A DNA stretch of 64,000 nucleotides from assembly GCF_900090295.1 (NCBI RefSeq), contig NZ_LT607753.1, forward strand, positions 1,550,001-1,614,000, in the 5' to 3' direction. Under the pieces are notes generated by a model that saw only the letters and a list, made by a program, of their open reading frames with translations, was not told the origin of the DNA and searched no databases. Every line of letters starts with the position of its first letter. Within the stretch, counting starts at the first letter, position 1. Shown here in pieces: positions 56,271-63,203 of the stretch. A program made the translations under genes and the position numbers. Origin of the DNA: Micromonospora coxensis (lineage in GTDB: Bacteria; Actinomycetota; Actinomycetes; Mycobacteriales; Micromonosporaceae).

Positions 56271-56618
56271 ATGCAGCCAGGTACGGACACCGCCGTCGTC
56301 CTGCACACCTTCGACGAGTGCGACCGCAAGGCAGATCGGCTGCGACGCGGCTACGTGGACCTGGCCACGAACGTGATCGAGGACGGCAAGCTCGGCGAGC
56401 GGACGCACGACGAGGACGTGAAGCTGACGGCCGCCGACCTCCAACTCGGCGCGCAGGAACTGCTGGACACCATCGACGGTCAGCTGACACTGCTGTCGGG
56501 GCCGGTCGCCCCCACCGGGCTACCGACCGACATCCAGGGCCGTTACCAGCAGATGCGCACGGACATGGCCGCCGTCCTCAAGTACGCCGCGACCGTCCTG
56601 GCCAGCCGCACCGGCTGA
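56271..56618 (+). CDS. Small helical protein of unknown function
   Basis: 115 aa, acidic, predicted mostly helical, no signal peptide, no membrane segment and no WXG motif. Start ATG 56271 has GGAGG 5 nt upstream, so expression is likely. Sequence such as TFDECDRKADRLRRGYVDLA and QGRYQQMRTDMAAVLKYAATVL suggests two long helices. I do not recognise a family. It converges with the DUF6244 gene and the FtsK-like cluster, and its size and helicity fit a partner of that system (inference only). Confidence 0.7.
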   Translation: MQPGTDTAVVLHTFDECDRKADRLRRGYVDLATNVIEDGKLGERTHDEDVKLTAADLQLGAQELLDTIDGQLTLLSGPVAPTGLPTDIQGRYQQMRTDMAAVLKYAATVLASRTG

Positions 56619-56767: not shown

Positions 56768-57031
56768 TCAGTTGCCCAGGGCCTGGACCTTCGCGATCGT
56801 CTCCTGGACGTGCTGCCGGGCCGGCTCACTGCCCTGGGCGGCCTGCTCCAACGCCTGCCGGTAGGAGTCGATCACGCCGATCAGCTGGCCGGCGGCCACG
56901 CCCTCCAGCGCGCCGGCCACCAGCGCCCGCGCCTCGGCGGCGTCCTGCGCGGCGGCGGCCGTCTTCGCCTTCGCCTCGTCCAGCTTCTGCACCGCCGCTG
57001 CCAGCCTCGCGATGATCTGCGCCGCGCTCAC
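56768..57031 (-). CDS. Small helical protein, DUF6244-like
   Basis: 87 aa. A two-helix Ala-rich protein: SAAQIIARLAAAVQKLDEAKAKTAAAAQDAAEARAL, a Gly-containing turn, then GVIDSYRQALEQAAQGSEPARQHVQETIAKVQALG. Size and shape are like WXG100/ESX-type substrates, but the WXG turn itself is absent. It resembles DUF6244, known from actinomycetes. It follows the coiled-coil membrane protein by 120 bp on the same strand. Start GTG 57031. Confidence 0.75.
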   Translation of the reverse strand: MSAAQIIARLAAAVQKLDEAKAKTAAAAQDAAEARALVAGALEGVAAGQLIGVIDSYRQALEQAAQGSEPARQHVQETIAKVQALGN

Positions 57032-57151
57032 GTGCCCCCCCGGATCGACTCACAATCGGCCGGGTCACCGCACCGGCAGCGACCACAAGGGAGCCTACGA
57101 GATCCGCGCACCCACCGCGACCAGGCGCTGACGCGAGCCGCCGTGACCGGC

Positions 57152-57919
57152 TCAGCGCAGGGCGCGGACCACGAGCAGGCTGGCGCAGTAGGCGATGGGC
57201 ACCAGGGCGACGCAGATGACGAAGCCGAGCGGGACGAAGCGCGGCGGGTCCACGGTGGCCAGGGCGGGACGGCCCCAGCGCCCGAGGATGAACCAGCCGG
57301 CGGCGAACGACAGCACCGGCAGCCCGGCGCAGACCCACGCGCCCAGGGTGAAGCCGCTGACCAGCCCGACCCCCGATGCCACCACCAGCACCAGCATGAG
57401 CAGCACCCCGACGGCGGCGCAGGCGACGTAGACAGCGACCGCCCGGGCCGCCGGTGACCAGGTGGGCAGCAGCTCGGGGCGCTGCCCGAGCGCCTCGACG
57501 TGCCGGGTGTGCCCGTCGGCCTCGTCGGCCAGCCGGCGGGCCTCCTCCAGCGCCGCCGCCGGATCGCTGTCGGCGACGGCCGAAACGGGTGTCGGGGACC
57601 CGGCTAGGGCCGGGCCGGGAGTCGGGGACCCGGCGACGGCCGGGACGGGAGTCGGGGACCCGGCGACGGCCGGGACGGGAGTCGGGGACCCGGCGACACC
57701 GGCCGGCGCGGCGGACGCCGGACCGGCGGGAGCGACGCCGATCGCCTGGCCCAACTGCTCCAGCCGCTGCTCCTGCACCATCAGCCGCTGGCCGAGCTGG
57801 TCGATTCCGGCGTGCAGCCGGCGGCGGCGTTCGGCCTCGGCGGCCGCCCCCCGCTCCCCGTCGCGGACCTGGCCGGAGAGCTGGCGGACGGCGGCGGCGT
57901 ACTCGTCGAAGGTGGCCAC
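57152..57919 (-). CDS. Coiled-coil membrane protein with Pro-rich repeat linker
   Basis: 255 aa. N-terminal coiled coil (~1-60; FDEYAAAVRQLSGQVRDGER, LGQRLMVQEQRLEQLGQ), a linker of four GSPTPVPAVA-like decapeptides (~75-115), a second short helix, then three to four transmembrane helices (~160-250). No signal peptide. GTG start at 57919 immediately abuts the TGA stop of the FtsK-like gene, so translation is coupled. I recognise no named family; it may be the membrane anchor of the neighbouring ATPase (inference). Confidence 0.78.
   Translation of the reverse strand: MATFDEYAAAVRQLSGQVRDGERGAAAEAERRRRLHAGIDQLGQRLMVQEQRLEQLGQAIGVAPAGPASAAPAGVAGSPTPVPAVAGSPTPVPAVAGSPTPGPALAGSPTPVSAVADSDPAAALEEARRLADEADGHTRHVEALGQRPELLPTWSPAARAVAVYVACAAVGVLLMLVLVVASGVGLVSGFTLGAWVCAGLPVLSFAAGWFILGRWGRPALATVDPPRFVPLGFVICVALVPIAYCASLLVVRALR
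57591..57710. repeat. 30-bp coding tandem repeat
   Basis: Exact 30-bp period with copies starting at 57591, 57621, 57651 and 57681 (GTCGGGGACCCGGC...), inside the coiled-coil membrane protein gene; it encodes the decapeptide linker, so copy-number change would keep the frame. Confidence 0.88.
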
Positions 57920-60472
57920 TCAGCGCTCCTCGTCCTCGGGCCGGTGCCCGGGGCGGACGAACGGCACGATCAGCGCGGTCCGCTGGGCGTGCCGGTCGAC
58001 CAGCAGCGCCCGGTCGGGCCGGGGGGTGTAGGTGAGGTCGGTGACGCCGAGGTGCAGGCCGAGGTCGGCGGCGGGCACGTTCAGCGCGACCAGGCAGGCC
58101 ACGTCGTCGCGGTTCTGCGAGCCGCCGAGGTCCTCGCCGAGCCGGCGCAGCCCGCGCCACCAGCCGAGCAGGTGGGTGCCCTGCCCGGGCCCCTGGCGCA
58201 GCAGGGTGCGCAGGTCGTCGTGGCCGGAGCGGAAGGTGCCCGGGTCGCTGCGGCCGAGCGCGCCGGCCGCCGCGTCGACGCCGAAGACCACCAGGTACGT
58301 GCGGCGCTCCCCCGCTGCGGCGGCCAGCTCACCGATGCGCTGGCGCAGCCCCGCCGCGTCCAGGACGGTGACCGGGTGCCCGGCCGCCTTGATCCCGGCG
58401 ACGGTGTCGTCGGCCAACTCGTCGGCGGCCTCCACCAGCGGGGCGAGGACGAAGTCCGCCTCGCCCGGGGTGTGCTGGCGGGCCACGCCCAGCGCGGCGG
58501 CGCGCAGCACGTGCCCGCCGGTGACCGAGGTGCCGACCACCGCCAGGTGCCGGCCGGGGGTGGCGTCCAGGGTGAACCGGGCGGGGCTGCCGTCCACGTC
58601 CACGGTCCGGCCGACCAGGATGGTCGGCCGCCGGCCGCCGGGGCGCAGGGCGACGCCGGCCGGGTCGTCCTCCAGGTGCGCCGGCTCGTACCCCCGGAAG
58701 ACGGTCGGCGGGCGGGTGCCCTCCGGCGCGGCGTCCCACAGCTCGTAGCGCAGCCGGGCGACCTGCCGGGCGTCGGCGTGCGCGTCCGGGAACCGGACCA
58801 GCAGGTCCGCGCCGGGCGCGCCGGCGGCGGTGTTCACCACGGCGGTGCCGAGGGTGGTGGCGGCGCTGCCGCCGGGGCGGTGGCCGAGCACGGCGTCCCC
58901 GCCGGGCAGCGCCACCCGCAGGGCGAACTGCCCGAAGAGCGTGTCGGCGCGGCCGTAGAGGGCCTCGACCCCGGTGGTGCTCTGGCTGGCCAGCACGAGG
59001 TGCACGCCGTAGGAGCGGCCCTTGCGGGCCAGTTCCTCCAGCAGGTCGACGGCGTCGCGGGCCAACCGGTCGTTGCCGGAGAGCAGCACGTGGAACTCGT
59101 CGATCACCGCCACCACGCGGGGGACGGACGCGTCGGCGGGCAGGTCGGCGAGCTTGGTGGCGCCGTGCCGCTTGAGCAGCCCGGCCCGGCGGCCCAGTTC
59201 CCGGCGCAGCTCGCGCAGGACGGCGAGGCCGTACTCGCGGTCGGACTCGACGCCGACGGCCCGGGCGTGGGGCAGGAAGGAGGGGTCGCGTTCGGTGGGC
59301 ACGAACTCGGTGAAGCTGACGCCCTCCTTGAAGTCGAGCAGCCAGAGCTGGAGTTCGGCCGGGGAGTACCGGGCGGCGAGCGAGTAGAGCACGTCGACCA
59401 GGAAGACCGTCTTGCCCGCGCCGGTGCGCCCGCCGACCAGCCAGTGCGGGGTGGCGTCGTCGAAGCCCAGCACCGCCGGCTCCCGCCCGGCCCGGCCGAC
59501 CACCGTGCGCAGTCCGGCCCGCGCGGACTCCGTCCAGCGCCGCTCGGGGAGCAGGTCCTCGACGTGCAGCGCCGCGTCGCGCCGCACGGCCGCGTCCAGC
59601 CGGGCGGCCAGCGAGCGTACGGCCTGCGCGGGCGGGTCGCCGTCGAGCAGCACCGGTACGGCCAGCCCGCCGCCGTCGTCGCCGAACGGGTGCCCGGGCG
59701 GGTCGCCGACCCAGGCGTACCGCTCGTCGAGCCGCAGCGGCGTGGTGGCGCCCAGCGGCGGCGGGGCCTGCCCGGGTGACCCGGCCGGGTACCCGGCGAG
59801 CAGCACGCACACCGCGGCGGTCGGCCCGGCGTGGGTGAGCGCGGCGAGCCGGGCCAGCTCGCGCGGGCCGGGTGCGGAGGCGGCGACCACCAGCAGCAGC
59901 TCGTGGTCGTCCCGGCCGGACTGCTGGGCGGCCCGCACGTGCGCCTCGGCCCCGTCGAGCAACGCGGCGATCTCCGCCTCGGTGGTGGCGGTCGCGTCGA
60001 GCACCCCGGCGTCGCGCAGGGGGCGCAGCGGCAGGAAGGTGGCGCCGAGGGCGGCCGGGTCGATGCCGACCACCCGGACCGCGCCGGGCGCGGCGGTGGC
60101 GAGCAGGCGCAGCACCAGCACCCGCAGCAGCACCGCCACCCGGGGGTCGCGGGCGTCGGCGGTGACGGCGAGGTGGTGCCCGGCGCCCAGCGGCAGCAGC
60201 AGCGGGAACCGGCCGTCGGCGGTGGACGCCTCCCCGATCCGCACCGGCGCCGGCGCGCCGGCCGGGCGGGTGGTCTCCGCGCCGGGCGCGGTCAGCGCGG
60301 CGCCGAGGCGGCCCAGCCGGGCGATGAGGTCGACGGTGCGCTCCGGCACGGGTTGCCCGCTGAGCTTCTCGAGCAGCGCCCGGGCGCGGGCCCAGTGTTG
60401 CCGGGCCTGCCGGTGGACCGCGACCGCCTGCCCGTACGTCGACGCGAGCCTGCCCACCGTCTGCTCCCCCAC
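57920..60472 (-). CDS. FtsK/SpoIIIE-type ATPase, EccC-like
   Basis: 850 aa. Central ATPase domain with Walker A GGRTGAGKT (347-355), DFKEG (380-384) and Walker B VVAVIDEF (453-460), then ELARKGRSYGVHLVLASQS, a typical FtsK/HerA sensor region. An N-terminal module (~95-235) and a C-terminal one (~620-850; LAVVGTSVTGGHVLRAAAL) look like degenerate copies without P-loops, giving an EccC-like three-ATPase plan with only the middle one active. There is no transmembrane helix, unlike EccC or FtsK; the next gene supplies membrane segments. Residues 1-60 are helical. Start GTG 60472; 61 bp after the receptor gene. Confidence 0.88.
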   Translation of the reverse strand: MGEQTVGRLASTYGQAVAVHRQARQHWARARALLEKLSGQPVPERTVDLIARLGRLGAALTAPGAETTRPAGAPAPVRIGEASTADGRFPLLLPLGAGHHLAVTADARDPRVAVLLRVLVLRLLATAAPGAVRVVGIDPAALGATFLPLRPLRDAGVLDATATTEAEIAALLDGAEAHVRAAQQSGRDDHELLLVVAASAPGPRELARLAALTHAGPTAAVCVLLAGYPAGSPGQAPPPLGATTPLRLDERYAWVGDPPGHPFGDDGGGLAVPVLLDGDPPAQAVRSLAARLDAAVRRDAALHVEDLLPERRWTESARAGLRTVVGRAGREPAVLGFDDATPHWLVGGRTGAGKTVFLVDVLYSLAARYSPAELQLWLLDFKEGVSFTEFVPTERDPSFLPHARAVGVESDREYGLAVLRELRRELGRRAGLLKRHGATKLADLPADASVPRVVAVIDEFHVLLSGNDRLARDAVDLLEELARKGRSYGVHLVLASQSTTGVEALYGRADTLFGQFALRVALPGGDAVLGHRPGGSAATTLGTAVVNTAAGAPGADLLVRFPDAHADARQVARLRYELWDAAPEGTRPPTVFRGYEPAHLEDDPAGVALRPGGRRPTILVGRTVDVDGSPARFTLDATPGRHLAVVGTSVTGGHVLRAAALGVARQHTPGEADFVLAPLVEAADELADDTVAGIKAAGHPVTVLDAAGLRQRIGELAAAAGERRTYLVVFGVDAAAGALGRSDPGTFRSGHDDLRTLLRQGPGQGTHLLGWWRGLRRLGEDLGGSQNRDDVACLVALNVPAADLGLHLGVTDLTYTPRPDRALLVDRHAQRTALIVPFVRPGHRPEDEER

Positions 60473-60533
60473 GACGTCCGTCCGGTCGTGGGGAACCCTA
60501 ACGGAGCCGCGCCCGCGGCGCACCAGCCGCAGC

Positions 60534-63203
60534 TCACCGCGGGCGGCACGCCGGATCGGGCCCGCCGTCGACGCTGCCGCAGTGGAACACCTCCACCGGC
60601 GCGGCGTCGACGTCGGGCACCCGGGCGACGGTGAGCAGCGCGATCCGCTTGGCGACGGGCTCACCGGAGTCCGGGCCGTACCGGATCACCCCGGCGACCC
60701 CCGGGTAGCCGCCGGCGGCGTTCTGGCGCAGCACCTCGGCGTGCACCCCCACCGGGTTGACCGAGCGGGGTTCCCACCGCCGGCCGGTGTCGGCGTGCCG
60801 CAGCCGCGCGGCGAGGCTCTCCAGCGCGCGCACCATCATCATCGAGGCGTCGTAGGCGAGGCTGACCCGTTCCCCGACCGGCGGCCCGGCGCCGTCGCGG
60901 CAGCGCGGCGGGTCGAGCAGGTCGTCGGCGCTGATCCAGGCGAGGAAGCTGCCCCGGGCGTCGTCGCGGCGGGCCTGCGCGGCGCGCAGCGCGGCGCAGG
61001 TGGCCGGCGCGGCCTTCGACACGTACGTGACCGGCAGGTTGCCCGGCGCGCTGGCCCGCAGCCCCGGGTTGGCCATGTACCGGTTGACCGAGTCGTCGGC
61101 GACGAGGTGCCGGGGCGGGTCGGTGCCGCACTCCTTGAGCGCGCGCAGGAACCCGTCGAACTCCGACCAGCGGCCGGCGAAGACCAGCACCCCGCGGAAG
61201 CCGCACTCCTGGGTCAGCCGCCGTCCGGTACGCCATTCGTCGAGCCGGGTGAGTCGGCTGCCGAACCGCTCCCGCAGCCCGTCGACCAGGGTGGACACGT
61301 AGAGGTCCTCGGCGAGCGAGCTGTCCTGGCCGGTGGTGTGGTAGACGTGCGCCTCGCCGACCCGCAGCACCTGCCGGGAGTACGCCTCGATCATCCGCGC
61401 CTGGTCGGCGTTGGGCGCGGAGATCTGCAGGTAGAGGCTGGAGTTCTGGTCCAGCCGGTCGGCCGAGAGGGTGGGCGCGAGGACCGGCAGGCCGACCCGG
61501 TTGAGTTCGCGCAGCGCGGCGGCGGTGCTGGTGCGGCTCTCCACCAGGCCCACCACCCCGAGCACGGTCGGGTCGTCGCGGGCCAGGTCCTCCAGCATGG
61601 CCACCGCCCGCCCGGCGTGGCGCATCTGCCGGCCGCCGTTGGCCACCACCACCCGCAGCAGGGCCGCGCCGTCGGCGGCGGCGGACTCCTTGAGCAGGGC
61701 GTACTGGGCGGTCGCCATGCCCTCCAGTTCCTCGCGCTCGGAGACGTACGACTCCTCGTCGGCGCGGGTCCGGTTGCCGGTGAGGGTGCCCAGGTAGACC
61801 AGGGTCAGGTACGGCCGGCGGTGGTCGCTGCGCCGCCACACCTCCTCGGCGGCCCGGTTCTGCGCGAAGATGCGCCGTTGCACCGCCCGCAGCCGGTCCT
61901 GGCCGGGTTCGCTGTTGAAGACCTGGCCGGCGCTGTCGCTGTAGCCGACGCACTCGCCGTCGACCAGCGTCACCGCCACCCGGCCCCGCGGGTCGGGGTG
62001 GCAGTCCAGGTTCCACCGGCCGGTCGCCCACGCGCCGACGCCGAGCAGCAGGGCCAGGGCCACCGCCGCCGGCAGGAACCGCCGCGACCACCAGGGCGGG
62101 TCGGGCGCGACCAGCGCCGCCGGGCCGGCCCCGGGCCCGGCCACCAGGTCACCGGCGGCCAGCCGCAGCACCAGCAGCCAGGCCGCGGCCCGCCGCAGCC
62201 GCCGGGTCTCCGGCAACGCCTCGGCCCATTCGTCGTACGCCTCGTCGGCCTCGCGCAGCGGGCGCGGCGCGGGCAGTTCCGGCGGTGCGGCGGTGGCGAC
62301 CGCGACGACCAGCAGCGGGTCGTTGCGGCCGGTCTCGTTGCGCACGTCGGTGAGGAGCCGGACCAGGGTGTGCCCGACGTCGCCGACGGTCACCCCGTCG
62401 AGCAGCAGCACCGGGTACGCGGTGCGCCGCCAGTCGCCGGGCCGCCAGAACCGCCGCCGGTACGCCTGCCGCAGGTCTTCCAGGAAGGCGTGCAGCAGCA
62501 GCTTGTCCACCTGGGCCGGGTGCTCGCCGTCGCGCCACCCGGCGGTGAGCCGTTCGGCGAAGCCGAGGAAGGTCACCGACTGCCGTGGGGCGAGGTACTG
62601 CTGGCGCATGAACCAGCGGTACTGGCTGCCGACCAGCGGCACCCGCCCGGACACGGCGATCCGGAACACCACGCTGGGCACGGCCCGGCGTAGCAGCCAG
62701 AACAGCACCTGCACCGCCGTGCCGAGGCCGGAGTCGCCACCGACCTGGGGCTCCTCGCTGGCGCGCCGGCCGCGCCAGTCCCGCAGTCGGCGTACCAGGG
62801 TGGCCCGGCCGCTGTCGGCGGTGTCGGTGGCGAGGCTCTGCTGCATCAGCCAGTCGGCGAGCGGGTAGTGCCGGAAGCGCAGCCGGGCGGCGCCGAACGC
62901 CTCCAGGGAGAGTTGGCGGTGCAGTTCGCGCAGCACCGTCGGGACGTCGTCGGTCTCCGGCCGGTCGGTCAGGTCGAGCACGGCGTGCGGCACCCGCCGT
63001 CCCGCGCCCCGGCCGACGAAGCGGCGCAGCAGCACGCCCGGCTCGCCGGTGGCGGGACGGACCAGCCACAGCAGCGGCAGCCGCCGGTCACCCCGGCGGG
63101 GGCGGCGCACCAGCCGGGCCAGCAGGTGCAGCAGTTCGGGACCGCCGGTCGGGAACCGGTCCCGGGCGCTCGGGGGTCGCTGCCGCCTCACGGAATCCCG
63201 CAT
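60534..63203 (-). CDS. Single-pass receptor: NTPase-like domain + TM + LivJ-like ligand-binding domain
   Basis: 889 aa. Cytosolic part (1-~370): beta-strand LPLLWLVRPATGEPGVLLRRF where an NTPase P-loop would be but without GxxxxGK; later YPVLLLDGVTVGD (Walker-B-like) and DPLLVVAVAT (sensor-1-like), so it looks like a degenerate AAA/STAND NTPase. One transmembrane helix at ~376-394. The outer part (~395-889) has the Peripla_BP_6 fold of LivJ-type proteins (YLTLVYLGTL, TVLGVVGLVESRTSTAAALRELNRVGLPVLAP, YLQISAPNADQARMIEAYS), with several cysteines. It would link an outside ligand to a cytosolic response through the FtsK-like partner. Start ATG 63203 with GGAGG 6 nt upstream. Confidence 0.82.
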   Translation of the reverse strand: MRDSVRRQRPPSARDRFPTGGPELLHLLARLVRRPRRGDRRLPLLWLVRPATGEPGVLLRRFVGRGAGRRVPHAVLDLTDRPETDDVPTVLRELHRQLSLEAFGAARLRFRHYPLADWLMQQSLATDTADSGRATLVRRLRDWRGRRASEEPQVGGDSGLGTAVQVLFWLLRRAVPSVVFRIAVSGRVPLVGSQYRWFMRQQYLAPRQSVTFLGFAERLTAGWRDGEHPAQVDKLLLHAFLEDLRQAYRRRFWRPGDWRRTAYPVLLLDGVTVGDVGHTLVRLLTDVRNETGRNDPLLVVAVATAAPPELPAPRPLREADEAYDEWAEALPETRRLRRAAAWLLVLRLAAGDLVAGPGAGPAALVAPDPPWWSRRFLPAAVALALLLGVGAWATGRWNLDCHPDPRGRVAVTLVDGECVGYSDSAGQVFNSEPGQDRLRAVQRRIFAQNRAAEEVWRRSDHRRPYLTLVYLGTLTGNRTRADEESYVSEREELEGMATAQYALLKESAAADGAALLRVVVANGGRQMRHAGRAVAMLEDLARDDPTVLGVVGLVESRTSTAAALRELNRVGLPVLAPTLSADRLDQNSSLYLQISAPNADQARMIEAYSRQVLRVGEAHVYHTTGQDSSLAEDLYVSTLVDGLRERFGSRLTRLDEWRTGRRLTQECGFRGVLVFAGRWSEFDGFLRALKECGTDPPRHLVADDSVNRYMANPGLRASAPGNLPVTYVSKAAPATCAALRAAQARRDDARGSFLAWISADDLLDPPRCRDGAGPPVGERVSLAYDASMMMVRALESLAARLRHADTGRRWEPRSVNPVGVHAEVLRQNAAGGYPGVAGVIRYGPDSGEPVAKRIALLTVARVPDVDAAPVEVFHCGSVDGGPDPACRPR

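What the first reader, a model, noticed from the sequence alone, without database searches (positions are those of the whole stretch)
56768..63203. Candidate undescribed ligand-sensing FtsK/EccC-like system
Four same-strand genes are packed together: a single-pass receptor with a LivJ-like extracellular domain and a degenerate NTPase-like cytosolic domain, an EccC-like ATPase with one intact and two decayed ATPase modules, a membrane protein with a coiled coil and repeat linker, and a small WXG100-sized helical protein. Gaps are 61, 0 and 120 bp. An ATPase of the secretion/DNA-pumping class coupled to a solute-binding receptor is not a standard secretion, cell-division or ABC system. I infer a signal-gated translocation or conflict/defence role.
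Basis: partly seen in the sequence, partly recalled or inferred. Interest (0 to 1): 0.8.

Follow-up and report, generated by a model that had tools for sequence, protein, structure and literature searches.

The report
Minimal type VII-like toxin exporter cassette
A motor ATPase gene and a membrane-protein gene sit side by side across many actinobacteria, often with a gene for a tiny helical protein, and likely form a stripped-down secretion machine; relatives of the tiny protein stand directly before bacterial toxin genes and are predicted to be fused to them by a ribosome slip, while the receptor gene next door comes and goes on its own.

Summary
Genes and gaps (61, 0, 120 bp) are as described, but the unit is not a receptor-driven operon. 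ATPase and membrane coiled-coil gene are an almost inseparable pair: the second follows the first in 94 of 96 testable loci. In 67 of 106 an 86-87-residue helical protein lies downstream on the same strand; DUF6244 belongs to that family. The ATPase models like three-module EccC, with only the middle module intact. The receptor is optional: intact at 14 of 28 loci of this lineage, absent from 27 other-lineage loci. Elsewhere, DUF6244 genes (one in this genome) precede CdiA_C or DddA-like toxin domains. There the toxin lies in the -1 frame behind a G_GGA_AAC heptamer at the stop codon, with a hairpin 6 nt further on: a programmed -1 frameshift is predicted to fuse the two. Where this ATPase lineage is dead or truncated, DUF6244 is missing (26 of 26 intact against 0 of 3). 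Best reading: a reduced type VII-like exporter of DUF6244-tagged proteins. Export and frameshifting are unmeasured, and the window's own DUF6244 lacks the slip site.

The parts
57920..60472 (-). EccC-like ATPase, three modules, only the middle one with intact Walker A and B
57152..57919 (-). Membrane protein with N-terminal coiled coil, variable repeat linker and C-terminal hydrophobic helices; partner gene of the ATPase
56768..57031 (-). DUF6244 protein, 87 aa helical, third member of the cassette
56771..56777 (-). GGGCAAC directly before the DUF6244 stop: position of the GGGAAAC slip heptamer of other DUF6244 genes, here changed; the -1 frame behind it has 50 unconserved codons
60534..63203 (-). 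Receptor: N-terminal alpha/beta domain, one hydrophobic segment, LivJ-like ectodomain; optional neighbour, not part of the conserved cassette

Best explanation
The ATPase, the membrane coiled-coil protein and the small DUF6244 protein belong to a conserved actinobacterial cassette that likely works as a reduced type VII-like export machine, in which the coiled-coil protein would hold the EccC-like ATPase at the membrane and the ATPase would pump out DUF6244 and proteins tagged with it. Shown by sequence and models: conserved linkage; EccC-like fold with one live module; absence of DUF6244 where this ATPase lineage is dead or truncated; DUF6244 genes placed directly before toxin domains and immunity-type genes. 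Strongly indicated but not measured: a programmed -1 frameshift (G_GGA_AAC, then a hairpin) that makes DUF6244-toxin fusions. Inferred only: the membrane tether, export itself, its direction, and use against other bacteria. The window's own DUF6244 would give only the short form; a second copy in this genome, at 0.579 Mb, keeps the slip site before a DddA-like domain and an Imm1 gene. The receptor is an accessory neighbour that the cassette does not need.
For: Linkage: coiled-coil gene next to the ATPase in 94 of 96 testable loci; 86-87-aa gene downstream on the same strand in 67 of 106. Fold: EccC and EssC are the first eight PDB matches, before FtsK. Co-loss: 26 of 26 genomes with an intact ATPase of this lineage have DUF6244, 0 of 3 with a dead or truncated one (Fisher p 2.7e-4); by locus 52 of 66 against 0 of 4 (p 0.003). 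Toxins: 13 of 15 DUF6244 loci away from the cassette precede CdiA_C or DddA-like domains. Frameshift: slip heptamer in 49 of 50 intact CdiA_C-type loci; -1-frame codon pattern from the heptamer on; hairpin at the right place. Two more sets of the cassette genes in this genome.
Against: No export data. DUF6244 has no PF06013 match and its sequence has neither a WXG motif nor a C-terminal Y/FxxxD/E. No toxin of the two kinds lies in any of the 115 loci L090-L204, so toxin and machine are unlinked in the DNA. The window's DUF6244 has no slip site. The genome also has two canonical EccB loci and six WXG100 genes elsewhere, which could be the true exporter. G015, G067 and G138 carry DUF6244 but matched only the second ATPase lineage at 54-55 %, so DUF6244 does not need this lineage. 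The small gene is missing within the fetched stretch at 14 of 66 intact loci of this lineage and at 7 of 22 other-lineage loci (as corrected). The hydropathy scan also flags ATPase 112-130 and DUF6244 36-54, so it does not settle which protein spans the membrane. Helical proteins can attract each other in profile searches, though decoys gave 0 hits.
Confidence: 0.58

Rival explanations
1. The receptor, ATPase and coiled-coil protein form a ligand-gated translocase: the ectodomain senses a solute and signals through the N-terminal domain to the ATPase.
For: In 10 of 28 loci an intact receptor stands directly upstream of the ATPase, same strand, 61-230 bp away; the ectodomain is a ligand-binding fold.
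Against: 14 of 28 lack an intact receptor, in 4 of the other 14 an opposite-strand gene intervenes; 0 of 27 other-lineage loci have it; in the closest relative L127 (ATPase 94 %) only pieces of the receptor's first 177 residues still match.
Confidence: 0.07
2. DUF6244 proteins and their toxins leave through the canonical ESX systems, and the cassette is a regulator or quality-control partner.
For: Two EccB loci and six WXG100 genes lie elsewhere in the genome; the cassette has none of the other ESX membrane genes next to it among the genes scanned.
Against: DUF6244 is absent where the cassette ATPase of this lineage is dead, and a small gene of the same family sits in the cassette itself; whether ESX is intact in those genomes was not tested.
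Confidence: 0.17
3. The ATPase moves DNA (FtsK, TraB or conjugation type), and the small helical proteins are DNA-related adaptors.
For: FtsK motor domains match the model next after EccC and EssC; PF01580 covers the motor module.
Against: Best matches by sequence and by model are EccC, over the whole length in the model search; three modules with one live; toxin and immunity genes beside DUF6244.
Confidence: 0.1
4. For the toxin loci: toxin and DUF6244 are two separate proteins, the toxin being started by reinitiation or at a start codon inside the linker, with no frameshift.
For: 35 of 50 CdiA_C-type loci have some ATG/GTG/TTG between heptamer and toxin domain; in L260, L261 and L277 a TTG overlaps the stop.
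Against: 12 of 50 have no ATG/GTG/TTG from 60 nt before the stop to just before the toxin domain; the linker evolves as -1-frame codons from the heptamer on, third position fastest in 263 of 285 pairs; heptamer in 49 of 50; hairpin 6 nt downstream; SD-like purine runs upstream in only 2 of 62.
Confidence: 0.13

Closest known systems
Type VII secretion ESX/T7SSa: EccC ATPase with WXG100 proteins
   Same: Three-module ATPase; EccC is the best match by sequence and by model; small helical partner gene; toxin link
   Different: DUF6244 is no PF06013 member; the membrane helices seem to sit in a separate coiled-coil protein; EccB lies elsewhere
Mobile T7SS versions with a three-module ATPase, only the middle module active (footnote in Zhang et al. 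2012, PMC3482391, passages seen)
   Same: Three HerA/FtsK modules with only the middle one active, small solo WXG-type protein
   Different: Reported there for other phyla, not actinobacteria; the passage names no coiled-coil partner and no frameshift
T7SSb LXG toxins with small WXG100-like targeting partners DUF3130/DUF3958 (PMC9600955, abstract and outline seen)
   Same: Small helical DUF proteins encoded next to toxins act there as targeting factors
   Different: In that system partner and toxin are separate proteins; here a frameshift fusion is predicted
Polymorphic toxins: CdiA_C (PF18451) and DddA-like/SCP1.201 deaminases (PF14428) with Imm1
   Same: Toxin domains and, for the deaminase, Imm1 as listed in PMC3482391 (passage)
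   Different: Carrier is DUF6244 in another reading frame
Programmed -1 ribosomal frameshifting in bacteria and phages (PMC5009743, 12 of 21 matching places seen)
   Same: X_XXY_YYZ heptamer in register, short spacer, stable hairpin, C-terminal extension in a new frame
   Different: None of the passages shown describes a carrier-toxin fusion of this kind; the rest of the review was not read

Membership tests
Type VII secretion system (ESX) | EccC-type ATPase with three FtsK-like modules | tested here: met
   NCBIfam EccCa E 3.9e-21 but 75.5 bits against a cut-off of 509
Type VII secretion system (ESX) | Transmembrane helices in the ATPase itself | tested here: inconclusive
   A simple hydropathy scan flags only 112-130, which is a helix inside module 1 of the model
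Type VII secretion system (ESX) | WXG100 (PF06013) protein in the cluster | tested here: not met
   DUF6244 has no PF06013 match at E 0.1; the 86-aa gene of the 6.09 Mb set gives E 0.02, below cut-off
Type VII secretion system (ESX) | EccB beside the ATPase | tested here: not met
   EccB matches in this genome only at 4.09 and 5.95 Mb; the window is at 1.55-1.61 Mb
Type VII secretion system (ESX) | EccD, EccE and MycP beside the ATPase | not tested
   No whole-genome search was made with these families; the seven proteins scanned gave no such match
Type VII secretion system (ESX) | ATPase-dependent secretion of the small helical protein | not testable with these tools
   Needs a secretion assay
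Programmed -1 frameshift site (relatives, not the window) | In-register X_XXY_YYZ heptamer, downstream structure, and coding in the -1 frame | tested here: met
   slight covariation only
Programmed -1 frameshift site (window DUF6244) | Same | tested here: not met
   GGGCAAC and an unconserved 50-codon -1 frame
Programmed -1 frameshift site (relatives, not the window) | Measured frameshift product | not testable with these tools
   Needs reporter or peptide data
Polymorphic toxin system (relatives, not the window) | Toxin domain followed by an immunity gene | tested here: met
   CdiA_C and DddA-like domains; Imm1 after the DddA-like domain; the gene after the CdiA_C-type domain has no Pfam match, so its immunity role rests on position and recurrence
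ABC uptake system with LivJ | ABC ATPase and permease genes beside the binding protein | tested here: not met
   Pfam of the seven proteins at and around the locus shows none

The most novel reading that the evidence does not exclude
Actinobacteria carry a stripped-down type VII-like secretion machine (EccC-like ATPase, membrane coiled-coil protein, DUF6244-type protein) whose toxins are loaded by decoding: a programmed -1 frameshift at the very end of the small protein's gene adds a DNA-deaminase, tRNase-type or membrane-helix domain, so that a set share of carrier molecules becomes armed while the rest stay as unarmed partners.
Probability: 0.45. Interest if true: 0.86.

Novelty: new variant of a known kind. 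Interest (0 to 1): 0.74.

Why it matters
It would add a small secretion module to the type VII family and give a role to DUF6244, which no paper of the searched library names. A frameshift that fuses a carrier to a polymorphic toxin would be a new way to set the ratio of armed to unarmed carrier, and would mean that gene annotation splits the real protein in two. Both ideas can be tested with ordinary reporters and gene deletions.

Tried and rejected
Receptor-gated system: rejected as the general explanation by synteny. Known defence system: PADLOC gave only matches to the ATPase motor and a weak coiled-coil match. Rfam: only a tRNA in the window. Receptor N-terminal domain: no Pfam match in 54 members; the 50 fold-search rows shown concern the ectodomain type. 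The full ATPase as a whole-genome query failed twice by machine error; a 577-residue part worked on 20 genomes. Covariation in the hairpin is slight because the stem hardly varies: 4 of 11 pairs change on both sides, 5 cells; paired cells 92.7 % against 92.0 % in shuffles. One search scored L180, L183, L188 and L191 as dead because their called starts were too late; one search shows intact Walker A, and they are not counted as dead. In one search the script found no frame in L219 and took a wrong frame in L073, L243, L292 and L295; L073's true end was read. A first adjacency count for the coiled-coil gene (70 of 106) was too strict about start codons and was replaced. The 98 DUF6244 loci are the high-scoring part of two searches, so toxin-linked copies are over-represented. 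Reading the linker in another frame gave too few stop-free rows for a control.
Full report
OBSERVATION. The four minus-strand genes are present with the stated gaps. The genome is a Micromonospora (names of the nearest proteins); the window is G000:C1:1550001-1614000. The receptor has one hydrophobic segment at 376-394 and a LivJ/mGluR-like ectodomain. The ATPase matches FtsK_SpoIIIE, NCBIfam EccCa (E 3.9e-21, far below that model's cut-off) and T. curvata EccC in the PDB.

THE RECEPTOR IS OPTIONAL. In 61 genomes (37 of the tool's genus set, 24 of other genera of the order) the receptor matches in 22, the coiled-coil protein in 39 (37 of the genus set, two of them weakly: G015, G027) and DUF6244 in 33, all in the genus set. 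The genus set follows the tool and holds at least one Salinispora: G138's first contig has the length of one of the named Salinispora contigs. I fetched 35 stretches; 28 hold an ATPase gene of this lineage. Of these 28, 14 have an intact receptor, 2 a frame-broken one (L102, L121), 1 a deletion remnant (L103) and 11 none. In L090, L091, L094 and L116 an opposite-strand gene, alone or with two others, stands between receptor and ATPase; in the other 10 the gap is 61-230 bp. In 80 named loci the receptor matches in 23, some of them remnants, and in 0 of 27 loci of other genera or of the second ATPase lineage. Four relatives of 32-42 % identity (L111-L114) have no ATPase or coiled-coil relative nearby. 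Receptor and ATPase evolve apart.

THE REAL UNIT. With the 28 above, 106 loci with a readable ATPase gene were examined (2 of the 80 had none called; some species occur in both sets). The coiled-coil gene follows on the same strand in 94 of the 96 with enough sequence (exceptions L185, and L190 where it lies further on). Outside this lineage it is only 21-31 % identical to the window's; six of those scanned show three hydrophobic segments, the window's two. A third gene of 86-87 residues often follows. An HMM begun from seven 86-residue proteins of other genera reached 83 of 10,485 ORFs in four rounds, among them the window's DUF6244 (E 2.5e-5), with 0 hits in reversed and 0 in shuffled ORFs. 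67 of 106 loci have such a gene downstream on the same strand, at 39 bp to 9.2 kb. This genome holds two more sets: at 6.09 Mb an 86-aa gene, a 300-aa gene without Pfam match, an ATPase with intact Walker A and a coiled-coil gene; at 3.185 Mb an ATPase with a ruined Walker A and a coiled-coil gene, with no small gene found.

THE ATPASE IS EccC-LIKE. The model (pLDDT 87.3, pTM 0.75) matches EccC and EssC in its first eight rows and FtsK next. The middle module keeps Walker A in 22 of 23 orthologues aligned; the exception is L122.

DUF6244 IS MISSING WHERE THIS ATPASE LINEAGE IS DEAD. Of the 37 genus-set genomes, 26 have an intact ATPase of this lineage, and all 26 have DUF6244 over the cut-off; three have a dead or truncated one (G012, G016, G020), and none of these has it (Fisher p 2.7e-4). 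The other eight were not resolved for this lineage or, like G015 and G027, gave only second-lineage matches as best hit. Among 70 loci of this lineage with at least 3 kb downstream, 52 of 66 intact and 0 of 4 dead or truncated have the small gene (p 0.003; G012 and G020 are among the four, so the two tests overlap). Two further genomes without DUF6244 (G137, G111) and one with only a weak match (G093) also have a ruined or partial ATPase of this lineage; they were looked at because they lack DUF6244 and are not counted. G086, G098 and G139 also lack DUF6244 and gave second-lineage matches as best hit, with Walker A not checked; G165 was not resolved. G015, G067 and G138 have DUF6244 but gave only the second lineage as best hit, so the dependence is not strict on this lineage.

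DUF6244 AND TOXINS. 137 of 151 genus-set genomes carry DUF6244 over the cut-off. Of 15 DUF6244 loci away from the cassette (L060-L074), 10 are followed by a CdiA_C-type domain and 3, one of them in this genome at 0.579 Mb, by a DddA-like domain. A recurring small gene follows each: Imm1 after the deaminase type; no Pfam match after the CdiA_C type. Pfam on eight more toxin frames gave CdiA_C four times and DddA-like four times. The same toxin queries hit nothing in the 115 loci L090-L204.

FRAMESHIFT. In 97 DUF6244 genes located in 98 such loci, 84 end in G_GGA_AAC or G_GGA_AAT directly before the stop. Of 50 with an intact CdiA_C-type -1 frame, 47 have GGGAAAC, 2 GGGAAAT and 1 GGGAGAT; of 12 DddA-type rows 9, 2 and 1, the last a mis-chosen frame. 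The last glycine is GGA in 50 of 50, against 73 of 881 other glycine codons in the last 150 codons of those genes and 5 of 248 in five window genes. No in-frame G_GGA_AAY occurs in 39,326 codons of called genes from the window and four own-genome stretches, one of which repeats part of the window. From heptamer to toxin domain the DNA evolves as -1-frame codons: mismatch 0.218, 0.197 and 0.323 at positions 1, 2 and 3, third highest in 263 of 285 pairs (related sequences, so pairs are not independent). In 12 of 50 no ATG/GTG/TTG lies between 60 nt before the stop and just before the domain; in 35 of 50 there is one after the heptamer. RNA folded from 5 nt after the first base of the stop has mean z -2.05 against dinucleotide shuffles in 62 loci; windows at 60, 120, 200 and 300 nt give -0.06, -0.03, 0.17 and -0.42, upstream ones at -90 and -160 give 0.25 and -0.62. 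The stem GGGCTGG...CCAGCCC begins 6 nt after the heptamer in 45 distinct CdiA_C-type sequences, 92.7 % of cells paired, with little covariation. A DddA-type locus has another sequence but also a hairpin there (L074). No reporter or peptide evidence exists.

THE CASSETTE COPIES. Of 45 distinct cassette-linked DUF6244 genes, 17 have the heptamer. Heptamer and a homologous -1 extension coincide in 11; 6 have the heptamer only, 1 a shortened extension without it, 27 neither (Fisher p 1.2e-5). Nine intact extensions of 107-122 residues are conserved, third codon position fastest in 36 of 36 pairs; one of two tested passes a simple hydropathy cut. Their downstream RNA gives mean z -1.15 (11) against -0.46 for copies without heptamer (28). 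The window's copy reads GGGCAAC and has no such extension.

MECHANISM. The live middle module would drive export; the coiled-coil protein would supply membrane helices that EccC carries itself (recalled for EccC); DUF6244 would be the export tag; a slip in a share of translations would add the toxin. Everything after linkage, fold, co-loss and the frameshift signature is inference.

LITERATURE. 'DUF6244' is in 0 papers of the library. FtsK+WXG100+DddA+Actinobacteria: 0. Type VII secretion+frameshifting+toxin+WXG100: 0. Programmed ribosomal frameshifting+polymorphic toxin: 2, seen in the listing only, on other subjects by title. Ribosomal frameshifting+toxin+GGGAAAC: 2, one seen in passages. 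Frameshifting+polymorphic toxin+immunity protein+Actinobacteria: 0. Slippery+frameshift+immunity protein+toxin domain: 0. FtsK, EccC, WXG100, novel secretion, Actinobacteria, any four: 25 papers, 12 listed. The library lacks most subscription papers. Zhang et al. 2012 (PMC3482391, passages) mention in other phyla a three-module T7SS ATPase with only the middle module active, the nearest precedent. A Micromonospora lupini genome paper (PMC4182475, passages) places its T7SS genes in three clusters; the passages shown do not describe this cassette.

Noticed in passing
L073 (G000:C1:579321-579581), same genome, outside the window: Second DUF6244 gene of this genome: GGGAAACTGA at its end, a DddA-like domain (PF14428, E 4.6e-19) in the -1 frame and an Imm1 gene (PF14430) behind it.
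   Followed up: yes
L318 6803-11314 (G000:C1, about 6.095-6.099 Mb): Another cassette in this genome with an extra 300-aa helical protein of unknown kind between the 86-aa gene and the ATPase; possibly an effector.
   Followed up: partly
L316 7376-10730 (G000:C1, about 3.185 Mb): A cassette with ruined Walker A and no small gene found, beside folE-like and ftsH-like genes as in Actinoplanes/Couchioplanes loci L197, L202-L204 that keep the 86-aa gene (gene names by eye).
   Followed up: partly
L093, L099, L100, L123, L130, L139, L153, L170, L179 (cassette DUF6244 3' ends): Conserved 107-122-residue extension in the -1 frame with a hydrophobic stretch (EFLPALPKAVAGVVLG) and no Pfam match.
   Followed up: partly
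L175 11636-12271, L180 11661-12296, L184 11196-11795: A further gene of about 200-211 aa (starting near VIVPVG or IIIPVG) recurs right after the cassette in other lineages; no Pfam family at cut-off.
   Followed up: no
L101 4158-8181: In G030 an 847-aa NTPase-like protein and a second binding-protein-like gene (496 aa) stand between coiled-coil gene and DUF6244: the spot gathers variable genes (by eye).
   Followed up: no
L127 7384-7906: In the closest relative (ATPase 94 %) only pieces of the receptor's first 177 residues still match: a recent loss.
   Followed up: no
L120 5084-10952: A relative of the receptor's ectodomain stands in a separate gene behind a 490-aa gene and three small genes, one a 434-aa helical protein that looks ESX-like by eye.
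   Followed up: no
window 56271-56618 (+): 115-aa ORF opposite DUF6244 with coding-like codon usage and no Pfam or NCBIfam match; its query found no match in the other fetched loci.
   Followed up: no
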